Shown here one piece after another: positions 1,484 through 23,983 of a DNA stretch of 64,000 nucleotides. The stretch is taken from positions 1 to 64,000 of the forward strand of contig JAIQGF010000003.1 in assembly GCA_020072845.1 (NCBI GenBank), written 5' to 3'. The notes below the pieces were generated by a model. That model made no database searches and had not been told where the DNA came from. It saw only the letters and a list, made by a program, of their open reading frames with translations. The stretch comes from Terriglobia bacterium. Its GTDB lineage: Bacteria; Acidobacteriota; Terriglobia; Terriglobales; Acidobacteriaceae. A program made the translations under genes and the position numbers. Position 1 is the first letter of the stretch. Each line of letters starts with the position of its first letter.

Positions 1484-2191
1484 ATGGATCTGAAAGGCGC
1501 AAAACTCACCTGGCTGGGGCACTCCACATTCCGGCTGGAGACCGGCGGCAAGACCATCCTGATTGATCCCTGGGTGATGGGGAACCCGTCGTGCCCGGAC
1601 AGCGAAAAGAAATTGAAGAAAGTGGATGCGATGCTGTGCACGCACGGCCACTTCGACCACATCGGCGACGCGGTGGCGATCGCCAAGCAGCACAACCCGG
1701 TGGTGGTGGGGATCTTCGAACTGGCGATGTGGCTGCAGAAAAAGGGCGCGAAGCAGGTTGCGCCGATGAACAAGGGCGGCTCGCAGGAGGTCGCCGGCAT
1801 CAAGGTCACCATGGTGCACGCCGACCACTCCTGCGGAATCCAGGAGGACGATGGGTCCATCATCTACGGCGGCGAGGCGTGTGGTTACGTCATCGAACTG
1901 GACAGCGGCGTGAAGCTGTACCACGCCGGCGACACCAACGTGTTCGGCGACATGCATATCATCCACGAGCTGTATCACCCGGAGATCGTGATGTTACCGA
2001 TCGGCGATTTGTTTACCATGTCGCCGCGCGAGGCGACCTACGCGTGCCAGTTGCTGCGGCCTCAAACGGTGATCCCCATGCACTGGGGCACGTTTCCGGC
2101 GCTGACCGGCACACCGGCGGAACTGAAGCGGTTGGTCGCGGACGTGGGATGCGATGTGCTGGCCATGAAGCCCGGGCAAACGATGGGATGA
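1484..2191 (+). CDS. Metal-dependent hydrolase, UPF0173 / metallo-beta-lactamase fold
   Basis: A 235-residue single-domain metallo-beta-lactamase-fold protein. The metal site is visible as THGHFDHIGD (H54, H56, D58, H59), then HADH (about 112-115), D150 in YHAGDTN, and H200 in IPMHWGTF. This pattern and length fit the UPF0173 family of metal-dependent hydrolases, whose physiological substrate is not settled. The ATG at 1484 begins the typical first strand ending LTWLGHSTF. The gene is followed, after a run of GATCGGGTGATC-type repeats, by an O-methyltransferase in the same direction, but the 120-base gap argues against tight coupling. Confidence 0.85.
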   Translation: MDLKGAKLTWLGHSTFRLETGGKTILIDPWVMGNPSCPDSEKKLKKVDAMLCTHGHFDHIGDAVAIAKQHNPVVVGIFELAMWLQKKGAKQVAPMNKGGSQEVAGIKVTMVHADHSCGIQEDDGSIIYGGEACGYVIELDSGVKLYHAGDTNVFGDMHIIHELYHPEIVMLPIGDLFTMSPREATYACQLLRPQTVIPMHWGTFPALTGTPAELKRLVADVGCDVLAMKPGQTMG

Positions 2192-2195
2192 ATGG

Positions 2196-2240
2196 GATCG
2201 GGTGATCAGGTGATCGGATGATCGGGTGATCTGCTAGCGA
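2196..2240. repeat. Short tandem GATCGGGTGATC-type repeat
   Basis: Directly after the hydrolase stop the sequence repeats a 9-10-base word (GATCGGGTGATCAGGTGATC and variants) about four times. The same word family is found downstream of the secretin gene near 29826-29865. It contains the palindrome GATC many times over. Confidence 0.6.
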
Positions 2241-2313
2241 ACACGAGAGGGCGAAGCATCGAGAGTGCACGGGTCAGAGACCGTGGCACACAAGATCGTA
2301 GCTAAGGAACACT

Positions 2314-2991
2314 ATGGCGAAGGCAGAGCGGCCCTCGTGGGCGATGGGCGGTATCACCGGCGAAGCGGTGGACAACTATCTCTACTCGTTGCTGCCGGAG
2401 AGCGACCCGGTGCTGCGCGAGATGGAAGAAGAGGCGGCGCGGCGCAAGATCCCGATCGTGGGGCCGGCGGTGGGGAGGCTGTTCTACCTGCTGGCGCGGC
2501 TGAGCGGAGCGCGGCGCGTGTTCGAGATGGGCTCGGCGATCGGATATTCGACCATCTGGTGGGCGCGCGGCGTCGGCGAAGACGGGCACGTGATCTATAC
2601 CGACGGCGATTCCAAGAAAGCCATGGAGGCGTACAAGAATTTCGAGCGCGCCGGAGTGGAGAAGCGGATCGAGATCAAGGTGGGCGACGCACTGGAGCTG
2701 CTGTCGGAGCAGAACCTGGAGCCGTTCGACATTATCTTCAACGACGTGGACAAGGAAGATTATCCCAAGGTGTTCCGTCTGGCGGTGCCGCGCATACGCC
2801 GAGGCGGGCTGTTTGTCACCGACAACGTGCTGTGGAGCGGGCGGGTAGCGGAAGCCGCTGCGGGCGGAAAAAACACGGGGGATTCAACGCGCGCGATTGT
2901 CGAGTTCAACCGGATGCTGTACGGCGCGAAGGAACTGTTTCCCACGATTTTGCCGTTGCGGGATGGAGTAGCGGTGGCGCTGAAGCAGTAA
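2314..2991 (+). CDS. SAM-dependent O-methyltransferase (family 3, COMT/caffeoyl-CoA-like)
   Basis: A 225-residue class I methyltransferase. The SAM-binding motif I is FEMGSAIGYST at about 70-80; an acidic residue ends strand 2 (YTDGDS, about 95-100). The metal-binding acidic residues of the cation-dependent O-methyltransferase family appear in FNDVDKEDY (about 142-150) and TDNVLWSG (about 169-176). The family methylates catechol-like or other small hydroxylated substrates; the actual substrate cannot be told from sequence. The ATG at 2314 is preceded by AAGGAAC. It ends just before a crotonase-like gene on the other strand. Confidence 0.85.
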   Translation: MAKAERPSWAMGGITGEAVDNYLYSLLPESDPVLREMEEEAARRKIPIVGPAVGRLFYLLARLSGARRVFEMGSAIGYSTIWWARGVGEDGHVIYTDGDSKKAMEAYKNFERAGVEKRIEIKVGDALELLSEQNLEPFDIIFNDVDKEDYPKVFRLAVPRIRRGGLFVTDNVLWSGRVAEAAAGGKNTGDSTRAIVEFNRMLYGAKELFPTILPLRDGVAVALKQ

Positions 2992-3014
2992 TTAGCAATT
3001 AGCAATTAGCGCCC

Positions 3015-3596
3015 TCACCTCAAGAGTTGCGTAACTGCGGCGGCGACGGGATCGTCGGCGATCGCGTCCACCAGGCCGATGCGCAGCGCCTCGCGGGCGT
3101 GGACTTTCTCTGCTTCGATCATCATCTGCAAGGCGCGCGTTTTGCCGACCAGGCGCGGCAGGCGCTGCGTTCCGCCCCATCCGGTAATCAAGCCCAGAGC
3201 GGCGCCGCGATGCCCGAAAACGGCGTGCGGCGAAGCGATGCGGCGATGACAGGCGAGCGCCAGGTCGAGTCCGCCGCCCATGCAGTATCCGCCGACGGCG
3301 GCGACGACGGGAGCGGGGAAGCAGCCAATTTCATTCATCAGCGCCTGGCCCATGTGCGAAAAGTCATACGCCGTGGGGCCGGTGAGGGCGACGATTTCCG
3401 ACAACTCAGCCCCGGCGGAAAAGAATCTGTGGTTGCCGGTGATGATCAGCGGCCGTGGAGCGCGCGCGAGTTCGCGCACGGCGTCGGTGAGGGCGAGCAC
3501 GCAGGCGCGGGTCAGGCGATTGGTGCCGTCGGGCGAAGTGAGGCGGAGGACGGCGCAGGCGTCGCGCTCCTCGAGGTTGTAGTAGGCGTCCGGCAT
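3015..3596 (-). CDS. Enoyl-CoA hydratase/isomerase-like (crotonase) protein, short and lacking both usual glutamates
   Basis: Crotonase fold, acyl-CoA binding: the oxyanion-hole segments are visible (HRFFSAGAEL at about 56-65; YCMGGGLDLA at about 104-113) and the motif GWGGTQRLPR follows at about 139-148. At 193 residues it is shorter than the usual 255-265 and ends soon after LRIGLVDAI, so the C-terminal helical region is missing. The positions that hold the two catalytic glutamates in classical hydratases appear as D111 and about G131. Hydratase activity is therefore doubtful. The start at 3596 is chosen because the upstream residues up to 3632 are encoded by a dispersed noncoding repeat. 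The mutase small subunit lies next upstream on the same strand. Confidence 0.75.
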   Translation of the reverse strand: MPDAYYNLEERDACAVLRLTSPDGTNRLTRACVLALTDAVRELARAPRPLIITGNHRFFSAGAELSEIVALTGPTAYDFSHMGQALMNEIGCFPAPVVAAVGGYCMGGGLDLALACHRRIASPHAVFGHRGAALGLITGWGGTQRLPRLVGKTRALQMMIEAEKVHAREALRIGLVDAIADDPVAAAVTQLLR

Positions 3597-3694
3597 AAGA
3601 AAAGCGAACCACGGATTTACACGGATGAACACGGATCAGACAAGAAGAAAATTCATCCGTGTTGATCGGTGGCGATCCGTGGTCAAGTTTTTCG
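3597..3694. repeat. Dispersed repeat, CGGATTTACACGGAT family
   Basis: The gap between the crotonase-like gene and the mutase small subunit consists of CCACGGATTTACACGGATGA and, in the opposite sense, ATCCGTGTTGATCGGTGGC, which can fold back on each other. Related copies lie at 4160-4290 and 12431-12515. Confidence 0.7.
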
Positions 3695-4117
3695 CTAGGT
3701 GCCGGCGGGGATGCCGCGCGGTTTCACGTTGTGGCGGATGAACTGGATGATCTCGTCCATGGCGGTGCCCGGCTGGAAAATTCCCGCAACACCTTGCTGC
3801 TTAAGCTGCGCCACATCCTGGTCGGGAATGATGCCGCCCACCAGCACCAGCACGTCGTCCATCTTGTTCTGGTTCAGCAGATCCATGACGCGCGGCACGA
3901 TGGCGTTGTGCGCGCCGGAGAGAATGGAAAGGCCGATCACGTCCACGTCTTCCTGCAGCGAGGCGTTGACGATCATCTCCGGGGTCTGGCGCAGGCCGGT
4001 GTAGATGACCTCCATGCCGGCGTCGCGCAGGGCACGCGCGATAACTTTGGCGCCGCGGTCATGCCCGTCCAGACCGGGTTTGGCGACAAGCACACGGATT
4101 TTGCGTTCGTCTGGCAT
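3695..4117 (-). CDS. Methylmalonyl-CoA mutase, cobalamin-binding (small) subunit
   Basis: A stand-alone B12-binding domain of 140 residues. The cobalamin 'base-off/His-on' motif DxHxxG is present as DGHDRG (D17, H19, G22), followed by the expected SILSGAH (about 65-71) and GGIIPDQD segments. Together with the catalytic subunit at 5507-7306 it would form adenosylcobalamin-dependent methylmalonyl-CoA mutase, interconverting methylmalonyl-CoA and succinyl-CoA in propionate metabolism. In one-chain mutases this domain is the C-terminus; here it is a separate gene, as in archaeal and several soil-bacterial enzymes. It lies downstream of the large subunit on the same strand, with an AlkA-type gene and a repeat array between. 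Confidence 0.93.
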
Positions 4118-4127
4118 CGCAGGCCAC

Positions 4128-4620
4128 TATTTAACCACAGAGGACACGGAGAAAAACAGTCAACCGCGGATTTACGCGGAGGAACGCGGATCGGAACAAC
4201 AAAATGGGAAGCGCAAGCAAGAATTTAGCCACAGAGGACACGGAGAAAAATAGCTAGCCGCGGATTTACGCGGAGGAACGCGGATCGGAACGACAAAACA
4301 GGAAGCGCAACCAAGAATTTAGCCACAGAGGACACGGAGGAAAACGAAGCTTTTGCTGTAATTGGCCTTCGCGTTCCTCTGTGCCCTCTGTGGCTGACTT
4401 TTCTCATGGGAATCGCAAGAAAGAATTTAGCCACAGAGGACACAGAGGATCACCCAGCTCTTGCTTTCTTAGCCTTCACGTTCCTCTGTGCCCTCTGTGG
4501 CTGAGTTTTCTTCGGGCACGGAGGATCACGAAGCTTTTGCTTTCTTAGCCTTCACGTTCCTCTGTGCCCTCTGTGGCTGAGTCTTCTTCGCGTGTGTCCT
4601 CTGTGGCTGAGTCTTCTTCG
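4128..4620. repeat. Array of dispersed repeats (CCACAGAGGACACGGAG and CGCGGATTTACGCGGAGG families)
   Basis: About five imperfect units of 75-105 bp start near 4131, 4224, 4318, 4426 and 4516. Units 1 and 2 are near-identical direct duplications: TTAGCCACAGAGGACACGGA, then CGCGGATTTACGCGGAGGAA, then GGAAGCGCAA. Units 3-5 carry the repeat plus its opposite-strand copy (TTCCTCTGTGCCCTCTGTGG), so each can fold into a hairpin. The right end runs into the 3' end of the AlkA gene. No gene is supported in 4118-4525; protein-like readings there are repeat-derived. Confidence 0.8.
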
Positions 4621-5257
4621 CGGGCTTGTCCACCGAGCGCCACAGGTACCAGCAGGCCAGGGAGCGGTAAGGCTTCCACTTTTCCGAAAACTTCAAAATC
4701 TGCTTCGGCTTGGGGATTTTGCGCTTGCCGTAGGCTTGGCAGATCGCCATGTTGATGCCGAGGTCGGCGGTGGGCATCACGTCGAGGCGGCCGAGCGCGA
4801 AGATGAGGAACATCTGCGCCGACCACACCCCGACGCCTTTCACGCGCGTGAGGTGCTCGATGACTTCGTCGTCGGACATGCTGGGCAGGCTGGCAAAGTC
4901 CACGTCGCGGGCGATGGTTTTGTGCGCCAGGTCGCGAATGTAGCTGAGCTTCTGGCGGGAGAGGCCGCAGGCGCGCATCTGGACTTCAGAGAGGGCGAGC
5001 ACGGATTCGGGCGTGATCATGAAACCGCCGTAGAGAGAGCGCTCGGTCGCCTGCCCGCCGACCGCCTGTTCGCAGGCGTTTTGCAGGCGCTGGTAGATGG
5101 TGCGGGCGGCGGCGCCGGCGAGTTGCTGGAAGACAATGGCGCGGACCATGGCTTCAAAGGTTGCCGGGCGGCGGTCGAGGCGGAAAGGGCCGACGCGGGC
5201 GATGATCGAGGCCATGACGGGATCGGATTTTTTCAGGTGAGTGATGGCGCGGCGCAT
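4526..5257 (-). CDS. DNA-3-methyladenine glycosylase II-like (HhH-GPD), with repeat-encoded tail
   Basis: A 243-residue HhH-GPD DNA glycosylase of the AlkA type, which removes alkylated purines in base-excision repair. The helix-hairpin-helix is visible in LTRVKGVGVWSAQMFLIF and the catalytic aspartate follows in MPTADLGI. The start at 5257 (MRRAITHLKK) is chosen because upstream codons come from noncoding repeat text. The last 30 or so residues are lysine/glutamine rich (AKKTQPQRTHAKKTQPQRAQ) and are encoded by the repeat array at 4128-4620, so they are an acquired extension, not part of the fold. The gene sits between the two mutase subunit genes with no functional link that I can see. Confidence 0.87.
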   Translation of the reverse strand: MRRAITHLKKSDPVMASIIARVGPFRLDRRPATFEAMVRAIVFQQLAGAAARTIYQRLQNACEQAVGGQATERSLYGGFMITPESVLALSEVQMRACGLSRQKLSYIRDLAHKTIARDVDFASLPSMSDDEVIEHLTRVKGVGVWSAQMFLIFALGRLDVMPTADLGINMAICQAYGKRKIPKPKQILKFSEKWKPYRSLACWYLWRSVDKPAKKTQPQRTHAKKTQPQRAQRNVKAKKAKAS

Positions 5258-5506
5258 GGGAGTTTCAGTTTCGAGTTTCAGTTTCCGGTTGTCAATGTGC
5301 AGGGATGAAATCGGCTCACCACGGAGGCACGGAGACACGGAGTATTGAAGATTGCAGATTGAAGATTGAAGAATGGGTGCCGCGCGGCTGGGGTAAACGG
5401 CGGTCCCGGCGTGGGCGCCGGGACCCACCCAAAGTGAAACGGCACCGCCGGAGCAGCGGGCAAAAAGCAGGTTCCTCGCTGCGCTCGGAATGACACCTTT
5501 TGGAAG

Positions 5507-7306
<1,800 letters not shown>

Positions 7307-7488
7307 GATGGTTGTCGAAGCAAACCCCTCATCATAAGAGATGCGTGGAGTGGGAGCAAGAATGTCACCAGTTAGGGTAGTGGGTCCCTTTCTGAGAAGG
7401 GCGGTTGACGGGCCCAATCCGAGATTGTGGAGTCACAAGATTTCGCTGTCCTCCTCCAATTTCTCCAATTCGATCTTTTGTGTGATTG

Positions 7489-7827
7489 TCAATACGTGGA
7501 GGCCCATGCACCAAGCAGCATAAATACATTCACCAAAACGCTGACAGCTATCGTGGTCCACGCAAACAGCTTAGCGATCGGAGAAATGAGGAGTAGTCGT
7601 CTTCGTTTCCTGAACACGACAAGAGCAATCGTTGTCGTGATTGGTGTGACAAAGAAAAACCAAAGGAAGAAAAGCTCCGCGATACTTAGATGTGGCCAGA
7701 ATGGAACGGGACGGTCAATCGGGAACGAAAAAAGGAAAAGCGCGAAGCCCAGCAAGGAAGGGGAGCACCAGGCAAATACAGACCCAACATTCTTTTGGTG
7801 GAGGATTGATTCTTCGGAAGATGACAT
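7489..7827 (-). CDS. Small integral membrane protein, unknown function
   Basis: Not recognised. The 112-residue product has three strongly hydrophobic stretches, about 16-34, 47-70 and 82-108, with a basic loop FRKRRR (about 72-77) between the second and third; that charge pattern is typical of a real membrane protein rather than a chance frame. It stands alone in a low-gene-density gap between the mutase and a small single-span protein. Upstream of it (7828-8088) I see nothing else. Confidence 0.5.
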   Translation of the reverse strand: MSSSEESILHQKNVGSVFAWCSPSLLGFALFLFSFPIDRPVPFWPHLSIAELFFLWFFFVTPITTTIALVVFRKRRRLLLISPIAKLFAWTTIAVSVLVNVFMLLGAWASTY

Positions 7828-8088
7828 TTCGAAAACCTATCGCGATATTCTAGGAACCGTCGGTTAACTGCTTCTGCATGATAAATCGGTTTCCCGGAAA
7901 GTGGCCCACTACCCCAGTTCGCGAAGGTCAAAACGTTTCCTGAAATCTGCAAAGAGTTGCGGTAACCAGAACCGGAGTACCGGCGTAACGGGGGCATAGG
8001 TGGCGAGATGTCAATCACTTGCGAAACCGCGCTGTGGCGCTCCGGTTGCGATGTAGCAATGTGCTTGCAATCGGAGCGAGGCCAAACC

Positions 8089-8430
8089 ATGGACAGTTTC
8101 CTGCAACGTGAACGGGAAGAGCTGAAAACGCGGTGGAGCGGCGTGCTGGTGTTGTTGACTTGCCTTGCCATGATCCTGGTGGTGGCACAACAGGGTGGCA
8201 CCATTGATAAACAGCGGAACCTCATCCAACTGCTGTGGGACGATAGCAAGCAACTGAACAAAATCCGCATCCAAGATCTCGTCAAACAGCGCGAGAAAAT
8301 GTACCTCTCGGATCCACACTACGCCGCGCCGCAAGAGAAAGACAAAGCCCCGGCTGAAAAGGCTGCGCCGGCGCCGCAACGTCCGCCGGCGGTGCCAGCC
8401 AAGCCGATGCGGGTGCTGCACCAGATTTGA
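8089..8430 (+). CDS. Single-span membrane protein, unknown function
   Basis: Not recognised. The 113-residue product starts MDSFLQREREELKTRW, has one membrane segment at about 18-34 (VLVLLTCLAMILVV), then a polar, probably periplasmic region and a proline/alanine/lysine-rich tail. The ATG at 8089 is chosen over an upstream in-frame ATG at 8008 because the segment from here looks like a clean membrane-anchor N-terminus. It converges on the glycosyltransferase gene, leaving 21 bases between stops. Confidence 0.55.
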   Translation: MDSFLQREREELKTRWSGVLVLLTCLAMILVVAQQGGTIDKQRNLIQLLWDDSKQLNKIRIQDLVKQREKMYLSDPHYAAPQEKDKAPAEKAAPAPQRPPAVPAKPMRVLHQI

Positions 8431-22144: not shown

Positions 22145-22737
22145 CTCACGACGGTTGCGGATCTTACCGGCAACCTGTGTTGTTCCCTCATTGCTGGCTC
22201 CCTACGTTCAGATTCCGGACTCGGTTCCGCCTGTAGCGGCCTATGTGCCTGCCATGCCCCAACCACCGGCTTTGCCTGCCACAACGCCAGGTCGGGTCGC
22301 ACCTCGCAGCCCACCACGCTCCCGCCCGCTCCCACCACTTCCGCCATAATCGCAGTGTAGTAGCCGACACCGCAGCCGAGGTGATAGGCGCGGTCGCCGG
22401 GCTGCAGTTGGAGGGCGTCAATCCAGCGGCCCAGAGCGCTGGGCTGGCCGTTATTGATGTCGCGGTCTTTGTCGAGCACGACTACCACGTTGTGATAAAG
22501 GTGGCGCGGGTCATCAATGGGCGTATACGACATCTGGATGCCGGTCGCGGCCGACATTCCGCGCACGTCGGCGGACGCGATCTGCCACGGTCCCGGGCCG
22601 AGGAACTGCTCGCGGCGCACACGGGCAAAGGCGTCGGCAAGGCCGGGAGTGGAGAGGTTGGCGGCGAAACGGACCTCGTCGGCGTAGAACTGACGGCACT
22701 CCTCAAGAGTCATGCGGGGAGTATCCCACGCAGGCAT
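22123..22737 (-). pseudogene. Protein-L-isoaspartate O-methyltransferase, 3'-truncated
   Basis: The N-terminal half matches a protein-L-isoaspartate (PCMT-type) methyltransferase: FARVRREQFLGPGPWQ, then the SAM motif I in GDRAYHLGCGVGYYTAIMAE, and the acidic strand-2 end in VVGCEVRPDLA. After that (about base 22300) all similarity stops and the frame continues through low-complexity residues to a stop at 22123. About 100 family residues, including the post-I and motif II region, are missing. I read it as a gene cut by the insertion of the A/T-rich segment to its left. The start is either the ATG at 22737 or the one at 22713. Confidence 0.65.
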
Positions 22738-23524
22738 GATGCGAGCAAAGCAGGGACACGAAATCAAATATGAAACCGCTCCTCCCCTGAACGCCATCTA
22801 CTTAAGTCGGACAGACAGCTTGCCTCGCACTCAACAGTCCGCCGCCTCCGACAGCGCGCTGCGCCTCTACATCCTTCGCCACTTCATTGACCGCGGACGC
22901 GCGCCCACAGTCGCCGAAATGGCTGCCGCGCTATGCGCATCAACCCGCACCATCCGCGCCGGACTGCGACGCCTGGTCCAAACCCATGCATTCTGTCTCC
23001 AGGAAAATGGCGAACTCTGGCGCGCCGCTCCCTTTTCCGCCGTGCCCACCGCTTTTCCAGTGCAGGCCGGCAATCGCCGATGGTGGGGCAACTGCATCTG
23101 GGACGCACTCGGCATTCCCGCCATGCTGGGGCGCAACGCCCGCATCGAAGCCGCCTGCGGATGCTGCAATCACCGCATGTTGCTGGAGATCAGCAACGGG
23201 AAGCTGCGCGCGCCGGCGGGCATGATCCACATCGCCGTTCCCGCCTGCCACTGGTACGACGACATCGTTTTCACCTGAAAGACCATGCTTCTGTTCCGGT
23301 CGGAACAGCATGTGGAGCGCTGGTGCGCGCAGTGGAAGCAGCCGCGCGGCGGGACGCTCACGCTGCCGCAGGGATGGAGGCTCGCCCAGGAATGGTACGG
23401 CAACCGGCTCAGCCCCGACTGGCGTCCGAAAACCGTGCCGGAAGCGCAGGCCGCGTTTGCGAGCATCGGCCTGGCCGGCGAATTCTGGAGATTGGCAGAG
23501 GCAAAAGAGAAAGTTCTGAGGTGA
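22712..23524 (+). CDS. MerB-like organomercurial lyase family protein, probable selenoprotein (in-frame TGA)
   Basis: Two open stretches in the same frame, 22712-23275 and 23279-23524, are separated only by TGA at 23276-23278 and together make one MerB-type protein of 270 residues. The N-terminal half is a winged helix (PTVAEMAAALCASTRTIRAG), then the MerB core. The first catalytic pair of MerB (Cys-x-x-Asp) is C128/D131 in WWGNCIWDAL. Recalling plasmid R831b MerB (Cys96, Asp99, Cys159), the TGA is codon 189, 61 residues after C128 (63 in MerB), and a tryptophan falls at +15 after it in both proteins. The TGA is therefore at the second catalytic cysteine, where selenocysteine would be chemically sensible. 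MerB cleaves carbon-mercury bonds. The start is uncertain: 22712 overlaps the divergent methyltransferase start. The alternative reading is a nonsense mutation. Confidence 0.75.
23284..23312 (+). promoter_or_regulatory. Candidate bacterial SECIS element
   Basis: Immediately after the in-frame TGA the sequence folds as: CATGC (23284-23288) with GCATG (23308-23312); bulge TTC (23289-23291); TGTTCC (23292-23297) with GGAACA (23302-23307); apical loop GGTC (23298-23301). Bacterial SECIS elements need a short upper stem, a bulged U and a G-U in the apical loop, 15-20 bases after UGA. Here the loop begins 20 bases after UGA. From memory, E. coli fdhF has the same GGUC loop beginning 19 bases after UGA. 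Confidence 0.7.
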
Positions 23525-23527
23525 CCG

Positions 23528-23983
23528 ATGGCGCCAGAACCTGCTTATCGCAAAGCCACCGCCTTCGAAGCCTTCTTCAATCGCATGTTCGGCGTGCTGG
23601 TCGGACTCGGCTTGGGCATGCGGCACAACTATCTGGTGCAGGTGCGCGGGCGCAAGAGCGGGAAGGTTTATTCCACGCCCATTGATCTTCTCGAACTGCG
23701 CGGCAAGCGATTCCTGGTGGCGCCGCGCGGGCGCACGCAGTGGGTGCGCAACGCCGAAGCCGCGGGCGAGGTCACGCTGAAGAGAGGCAGCTTCCGGCGG
23801 ACATTTCAAATTCGTCCGCTGACCGACGCCGAGAAACCGGAAATTCTGAAAGCCTACCTGGATTCCTTCAGAACGACGGTGCAGCGCTATTTTCCTGTCG
23901 CAGCAGGGTCGGCGGCGGAAGCGTTCGGCGCGATCGCGCAGGAGTATCCGGTGTTCGAGTTGATCGATTCTGTCGCCCGCTGA
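23528..23983 (+). CDS. Deazaflavin (F420)-dependent nitroreductase-family oxidoreductase
   Basis: A 151-residue protein of the DUF385/Ddn family, small split-barrel proteins that bind F420 or related deazaflavins. Family text: RHNYLVQVRGRKSGKVYSTP (about 37-56), then VAPRGRTQWVRNAEAAGEVTL. It starts three bases after the stop of the MerB-like gene, whose last codons carry the GAGG ribosome-binding sequence, so the two are an operon. This ties an electron-transfer or reductase function to the presumed organometal lyase. The substrate is unknown. Confidence 0.82.
   Translation: MAPEPAYRKATAFEAFFNRMFGVLVGLGLGMRHNYLVQVRGRKSGKVYSTPIDLLELRGKRFLVAPRGRTQWVRNAEAAGEVTLKRGSFRRTFQIRPLTDAEKPEILKAYLDSFRTTVQRYFPVAAGSAAEAFGAIAQEYPVFELIDSVAR

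What the first reader, a model, noticed from the sequence alone, without database searches (positions are those of the whole stretch)
23276..23312. In-frame TGA at the second catalytic cysteine of a MerB-like protein, followed by a SECIS-like hairpin
Seen: the frame is intact on both sides of one TGA (23276-23278). After it lies CATGC-(TTC bulge)-TGTTCC-GGTC-GGAACA-GCATG with the GGUC loop starting 20 bases after UGA. Known, from memory: MerB uses Cys96, Asp99 and Cys159; E. coli fdhF SECIS has a GGUC loop at nearly the same distance. The TGA is 61 residues after the C128/D131 pair, with a matching W at +15. A selenocysteine lyase of carbon-metal bonds is chemically attractive. MerB-like selenoproteins may have been reported; I cannot check, and this gene pair may still be new.
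Basis: partly seen in the sequence, partly recalled or inferred. Interest (0 to 1): 0.92.

Follow-up and report, generated by a model that had tools for sequence, protein, structure and literature searches.

The report
Selenocysteine version of mercury-cutting enzyme MerB
This soil bacterium carries a relative of MerB, the enzyme that cuts carbon-mercury bonds, in which one catalytic cysteine is replaced by selenocysteine at a recoded stop codon, and elsewhere in its genome a second relative in which both catalytic cysteines are replaced, which points to an overlooked selenium-based branch of this enzyme family.

Summary
TGA 23276-23278 interrupts a full-length MerB-family protein (PF03243, E 6.8e-30) at the column of MerB Cys159; Cys128 and Asp131 match Cys96 and Asp99. 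The same TGA occurs in about 30 homologues from Acidobacteriota, Chloroflexota, Actinomycetota and Calditrichota; related proteins carry Cys there. After the TGA, five codons forming a GGUC-capped hairpin are frozen at synonymous sites (Arg CGG 20/21, 4.6 expected, P 2e-14), and the stem covaries. The genome has tRNA-Sec, selA, selB and selD. The predicted fold (pLDDT 90) matches MerB structures best. MerB-like selenoproteins are already reported (SaoL, motif CU), but this protein scores 42 against SaoL's cut-off of 140. Unexpectedly, a second family has two TGAs, at the Cys96 and Cys159 columns, each followed by a conserved hairpin. It occurs in seven acidobacterial genomes including this one (contig C12:87022-87759); in another it lies directly upstream of selA-selD-selB. 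I found no report of it. Sec insertion is near certain; organometal cleavage is inferred, and the substrate is unknown. A published survey requiring Cys159 found no MerB in Acidobacteria.

The parts
22712..23524 (+). MerB-like selenoprotein gene, read through TGA 23276 to the stop TGA 23522-23524; start uncertain between 22712 and 22820
   Evidence: Pfam MerB PF03243 E 6.8e-30 over residues 108-230, i.e. on both sides of the TGA; 86% identity in two genomes of the same genus; comparable coding constraint before and after the TGA
23276..23278 (+). in-frame TGA, residue 189, proposed selenocysteine codon; column of MerB Cys159
   Evidence: TGA at the same column in about 30 loci of at least 4 phyla, Cys in related proteins; alignment to 5c17/3f2g
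23291..23308 (+). SECIS candidate apex: 7-bp stem 23291-23297/23302-23308, loop GGUC 23298-23301
   Evidence: Synonymous codon freeze P 3e-5 to 2e-14 at its five codons, none in flanking codons; 94% of cells paired, covariation score reached by 0 of 500 shuffles; C-G to U-A exchange keeping the GGUC loop in L076-L080
   Evidence: Present in the window and its two genus mates; the lower stem is not well conserved elsewhere
23093..23095 (+). Cys128 codon, counterpart of MerB Cys96
   Evidence: Invariant in 11 family members (A1 column C91); alignment to MerB structures
23102..23104 (+). Asp131 codon, counterpart of MerB Asp99
   Evidence: Invariant in 11 family members (A1 column D94); alignment to MerB structures
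23156..23167 (+). CxxC pair Cys149/Cys152, near MerB Cys117
   Evidence: Invariant in A1 (columns C112, C115), but absent from some more distant TGA members
23528..23983 (+). next gene, deazaflavin (F420)-dependent nitroreductase family; possible co-transcription
   Evidence: TIGR00026 over cut-off, PF04075; begins 4 bp after the stop; a similar protein follows in G001 but not in G002

Best explanation
The gene encodes a MerB-type organometal lyase whose second catalytic cysteine (MerB Cys159) is selenocysteine, inserted at UGA by SelB and tRNA-Sec under the direction of the hairpin that follows. Shown: the conserved TGA, the intact protein on both sides, the RNA element, the complete Sec machinery and the MerB fold. 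Inferred by analogy to MerB: Cys128 and the selenolate of Sec189 bind the metal of an organometal (methylmercury or a similar soft-metal alkyl), Asp131 helps give the proton that releases the hydrocarbon, and the bound metal leaves to a cellular thiol or another carrier. Selenolate binds Hg(II) more tightly than thiolate (general chemical knowledge), so the gain is probably in capturing trace organometal, at the price of needing help with product release. The true substrate is not known; no mer genes were seen beside any member examined, and this genome has no MerA over the cut-off.
For: TGA at the same column in members only 42-50% identical to it from four phyla. Cys forms at that column in G012, G386, G397 and on Sphingomonas/Paraburkholderia plasmids. 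Synonymous conservation confined to the hairpin apex and stem covariation; the Cys form L012 has no such hairpin. tRNA-Sec with anticodon tca, selB, selA and a selD with its own TGA. All 16 TGA-bearing genomes of the 396 sampled have selA against 249 of 396 overall, hypergeometric 5e-4 ignoring kinship. C128/D131/U189 match C96/D99/C159. AlphaFold model pLDDT 90.3; the top PDB hits are all MerB, 5c17 Z 19.2 and 3f2f Z 15.8, above the LexA winged-helix matches at 9.9. Selone mimics of MerB cleave Hg-C faster than sulfur analogues (PMC11639659).
Against: No measurement of Sec or of activity. Gene neighbours differ between members and none examined is a mer gene, and MerA over the cut-off is in only 1 of 18 such genomes, so mercury as the native substrate is unproven. 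The closest Cys forms also change Asp99 to Cys, so they are not simple Cys-for-Sec copies of a MerB. Hairpin energy is not exceptional for GC-rich coding DNA.
Confidence: 0.72

Rival explanations
1. It is a genuine selenoprotein with the MerB fold, but not a lyase: a metal sensor, carrier or redox protein that uses Cys128/Sec189 to bind a soft metal or to cycle a selenenyl-sulfide, possibly linked to the downstream deazaflavin reductase.
For: No mer operon context seen; the N-terminal winged helix resembles LexA/DtxR-type DNA-binding domains, though MerB itself has one; additional conserved CxxC.
Against: Cys96, Asp99 and Cys159 counterparts are all kept (with Sec for Cys159); a pure metal binder would not need the Asp. 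The double-Sec family also keeps that Asp.
Confidence: 0.22
2. It is a member of the SaoL family of the Sec-assisted organometallic (SAO) system.
For: SaoL is a MerB homologue and selenoprotein with a CU motif (PMC13188914); the NCBIfam SaoL model matches residues 45-166 at E 7.6e-11.
Against: Score 42.2 against a curated cut-off of 140; motif TU/AU/NU, not CU; no SAO operon partners recognised around the members examined (partial check only).
Confidence: 0.05
3. Ordinary stop codon: a truncated protein, pseudogene or sequencing error.
For: TGA is also this gene's real terminator and normally means stop.
Against: TGA at one column across four phyla; constraint after the TGA comparable to that before it, e.g. 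G000/G002 after UGA 54 same, 14 synonymous, 6 non-synonymous codons; W204 and the C-terminal GxxxxFW are conserved.
Confidence: 0.01
4. The TGA is read as another amino acid (for example Trp) by near-cognate readthrough.
For: One homologue, L055 in G223, has Trp at this column.
Against: The hairpin conservation and the Cys exchanges fit Sec; L055 has also shifted its Cys96 counterpart; every TGA-bearing genome in the sample has selA.
Confidence: 0.01

Closest known systems
MerB, organomercurial lyase (plasmid R831b; PDB 3f2f, 1s6l)
   Same: Fold, Cys96-x-x-Asp99 pair, catalytic residue at the Cys159 column
   Different: Sec instead of Cys159, no adjacent second Cys (Cys160), extra C-terminal conserved segment ending GLxxxFW, no mer genes beside it
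MerB2 (PDB 5c17)
   Same: Closest solved structure by sequence and by fold
   Different: Cys, not Sec; the window protein keeps the Asp that the sequence aligned lacks at that column
SaoL, MerB-like organometallic lyase selenoprotein (NF040728)
   Same: MerB homologue with a Sec residue; proposed organometal chemistry
   Different: Shorter model (159 positions), CU motif, Sec-assisted organometallic operon; curated cut-off not met here. I could not obtain a SaoL sequence, so whether its Sec is at the same column is untested
Cys-containing MerB-like proteins with C-x-x-C (L012, L063, L064; Sphingomonas panacis plasmid WP_069207870.1)
   Same: Closest Cys relatives of this family, Cys at the Sec column
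   Different: Asp99 counterpart is Cys; no SECIS-like hairpin at that place in L012

Membership tests
Bacterial selenoprotein | In-frame TGA with protein homology on both sides | tested here: met
Bacterial selenoprotein | Sec/Cys exchange among homologues | tested here: met
   TGA in about 30 loci, Cys in L012, L063, L064, L081, L082
Bacterial selenoprotein | SECIS hairpin close behind the TGA | tested here: met
   codon freeze and covariation; no dedicated SECIS predictor was available
Bacterial selenoprotein | selA, selB, selC (tRNA-Sec) and selD in the genome | tested here: met
Bacterial selenoprotein | Selenium present in the protein | not testable with these tools
   needs 75Se labelling or mass spectrometry
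MerB family (PF03243) | Score over Pfam's gathering cut-off | tested here: met
   104.1 bits against 27
MerB, strict equivalog (NF009710, NF033555) | Curated cut-off | tested here: not met
   47.2 against 193 and 33.9 against 200
MerB, strict equivalog (NF009710, NF033555) | Cys96, Asp99, Cys159 | tested here: not met
   Cys96 and Asp99 counterparts kept; Cys159 is replaced by the TGA codon
MerB, strict equivalog (NF009710, NF033555) | Hg-C bond cleavage | not testable with these tools
   enzyme assay needed
SaoL (NF040728) | Curated cut-off | tested here: not met
   42.2 against 140
SaoL (NF040728) | CU motif | tested here: not met
   TU in the window, AU/NU in other members; motif CU from PMC13188914

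The most novel reading that the evidence does not exclude
Soil and sediment bacteria of several phyla carry an unrecognised selenium-based branch of organometal lyases. It includes an arrangement in which both metal-binding residues of the MerB active site are selenocysteine (U-x-x-D ... U), each UGA with its own recoding hairpin, and one genome (the window's) holds both the single-Sec and the double-Sec enzyme. It would break down organomercury or other metal alkyls without mer operons and with no MerA over the curated cut-off in nearly all carriers tested.
Probability: 0.5. Interest if true: 0.9.

Novelty: new variant of a known kind. Interest (0 to 1): 0.8.

Why it matters
MerB is the known enzyme for breaking down methylmercury. 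Surveys find it by requiring Cys96, Asp99 and Cys159; a survey of 84,032 genomes listed none in Acidobacteria (PMC8261052), yet here 15 acidobacterial genomes with the single-Sec form turned up in two small samples. A likely reason is that standard gene calling stops at the UGA. If these enzymes work, the demethylating potential of soils is undercounted, and selenium supply would be tied to organometal turnover. The double-Sec form puts two selenolates in one metal-binding active site, which makes a clear chemical question testable: what does selenium gain where the substrate is a metal with high selenium affinity?

Tried and rejected
Ordinary stop, pseudogene, sequencing error and Trp readthrough were considered and rejected (see rivals). 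Rfam found only a tRNA in the window, tRNA-Phe. Hairpin free energy against synonymous shuffles gave weak z-scores, so it is not used as main evidence. A gene-neighbourhood clue to function failed: neighbours differ between loci (isocitrate lyase family, peptidase, ABC transporter, DUF4268). Plasmid search found only relatives below 60% identity, the best about 33% and with Cys. The key SaoL paper (PMC9879109) and Haft and Tolstoy 2025 (PMC12013261) are not held, so SaoL was judged from reviews and its NCBIfam model. Review PMC7435645 lists 'organic mercuric lyase MerB2' among predicted selenoproteins without detail, so an earlier prediction of something in this family cannot be excluded.

Full report
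OBSERVATION. The window holds an open frame from ATG 22712 to TGA 23276-23278 that continues in the same frame to TGA 23522-23524. Read through, it gives 270 residues with a Pfam MerB domain at residues 108-230 (E 6.8e-30), spanning the TGA at residue 189. Coding constraint after the TGA is comparable to that before it: comparing G000 with G002, 106 same, 22 synonymous and 22 non-synonymous codons before, 54, 14 and 6 after.

THE TGA IS CONSERVED. Two genomes of the same genus have the gene at 86% identity with TGA at the same codon. A scan of genome contigs returned ten loci, 42-86% identical, from Acidobacteriota, Chloroflexota, Actinomycetota and Calditrichota, all with TGA at that column (L013 is the same record as L010). 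A profile search of 396 acidobacterial genomes gave 14 genomes with TGA in this family, two with Cys (G386, G397) and one with Trp (G223); six further TGA loci came from one class. G012 of the same family has Cys, as do homologues on Sphingomonas and Paraburkholderia plasmids. In a tree, the plasmid and acidobacterial Cys forms included group together within the spread of the TGA forms.

ACTIVE SITE. Sequence comparison with solved MerB and MerB2 puts residue 189 on MerB Cys159, and Cys128 and Asp131 on Cys96 and Asp99. Cys128 and Asp131 are invariant in the 11-sequence alignment A1. An AlphaFold2 model from window and genome-contig sequences has mean pLDDT 90.3, and the best structural matches are MerB2 (5c17, Z 19.2, 3.6 A over 191 residues) and MerB (3f2f, Z 15.8); the first matches outside MerB, to the winged helix only, are at Z 9.9.

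THE RNA ELEMENT. Among 22 sequences (L010 and L011, near-identical to the window, left out), the codons of the hairpin apex are frozen at synonymous positions: Leu CTC 14/16 (P 3e-6), Phe TTC 22/22 (3e-5), Arg CGG 20/21 where 4.6 are expected (2e-14), Ser TCG 20/21 where 6.7 are expected (9e-11), Glu GAA 20/22 (6e-8). Codons on either side show no such bias. These P values treat sequences as independent, so they overstate the case, but flanking codons of the same genes serve as the control. The seven-pair stem is paired in 94% of cells, against 42-59% when slid, and no shuffle of 500 reaches the covariation score. In L076-L080 the Arg codon has become Trp TGG and Ser TCG has become TCA: the closing pair changes from C-G to U-A and the loop stays GGUC. 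The Cys homologue L012 lacks the hairpin.

MACHINERY. The genome has a tRNA-Sec (C19:37445-37539, ARAGORN anticodon tca), selB (364.7 bits, cut-off 242), selA (563.7, cut-off 267.9) and a selD with an in-frame TGA of its own. All 16 genomes of the 396 sampled with a TGA-bearing MerB-like gene in the A1 search have selA, against 249 of 396 overall. The Cys-bearing genome G397 has no selA over the cut-off.

A SECOND, DOUBLE-SEC FAMILY. The profile search also drew out a more distant MerB family with two in-frame TGAs. With its own profile it was found in seven acidobacterial genomes with both TGAs (G000, G160, G256, G312, G379 with two copies, G431, G465), plus two genomes where the match covers only the second (G220, G316). 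G000 is the window's own genome (C12:87022-87759). The first TGA lies on the Cys96 column (motif U-A-E/V-D, so Asp99 is kept), the second on Cys159 (Y/F-U followed by FFWSEEHAR in most). Each is followed by its own hairpin. The first is GCCCUUCGUGCAAGGGC in most; in the window's genome it reads GUCCUUCGUGCAAGGAC, a C-G to U-A exchange in the stem. The second is UUCUUCUGGUCAGAAGAA with a GGUC loop in most. The three full sequences tested score 34-48 bits for Pfam MerB (cut-off 27) and fall far below every NCBIfam cut-off. In G256 the gene lies directly upstream of selA, selD and selB on the same strand.

MECHANISM. Shown: conserved UGA, RNA element, Sec machinery, MerB fold and active-site residues. 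Inferred: as in MerB, where Cys96 and Cys159 hold the metal and Asp99 assists (PMC4525700), Cys128 and Sec189 would bind the metal of an organometal and Asp131 would help protonate the carbon. Chemical models support a rate gain with selenium: selone mimics of the lyase react faster than their sulfur analogues (PMC11639659). Not shown: substrate, activity and how the metal leaves. MerA over its cut-off is in only one of 18 such genomes and not in this one, so Hg(II), if formed, has another fate, or the substrate is another metal alkyl.

COMPARISON WITH WHAT IS KNOWN. Reviews list one MerB-like selenoprotein family, SaoL (motif CU, part of the Sec-assisted organometallic operon; PMC13188914, PMC9312934). 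The window protein fails SaoL's cut-off (42.2 against 140) and lacks the CU motif. Review PMC7435645 lists 'organic mercuric lyase MerB2' among predicted selenoproteins without detail. I found no report of a double-Sec MerB, but two key papers were not readable here. A survey of 84,032 genomes that looked for Cys96, Asp99, Cys117 and Cys159 listed no MerB in Acidobacteria (PMC8261052).

VERDICT. A real selenoprotein family of MerB type, new as a subfamily as far as I could check, with a striking double-Sec sister family. Filed as a new variant of a known kind.

Noticed in passing
own genome G000:C12:87022-87759 (L092, L101:8023-8760); also L066/L073, L068, L071, L074, L091, L093: Second MerB-like family with two in-frame TGAs, at the Cys96 and Cys159 columns, each followed by a conserved hairpin; seven acidobacterial genomes.
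   Followed up: yes
L086 (G256:C19) 1746-8245, minus strand: Double-Sec MerB-like gene directly upstream of a selA-selD-selB gene run; this genome has a second selA elsewhere (C23).
   Followed up: partly
L086:3739-5439, minus strand: SelD carrying a C-terminal carboxymuconolactone decarboxylase/AhpD-like domain (PF02627), an apparent fusion.
   Followed up: no
own genome G000:C11:217051-218031 (L047): selD of the window's genome has its own in-frame TGA, so SelD is probably a selenoprotein here.
   Followed up: no
L055 (G223) 1504-2151: Homologue with Trp (YTWETIRFF) at the Sec column and a shifted Cys96 counterpart; looks like a family member that lost the catalytic pair.
   Followed up: no
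L012, L063, L064, L081, L082: Cys forms in which Asp99 is also Cys (C-x-x-C), a different MerB-like active site.
   Followed up: partly
window 23528-23983: Deazaflavin-dependent nitroreductase family gene starting 4 bp after the selenoprotein gene; a similar protein follows in G001 but not in G002.
   Followed up: partly
G379 (C202 = L062, C146 = L071, C15 = L100): One genome with one single-Sec and two double-Sec MerB-like genes.
   Followed up: no
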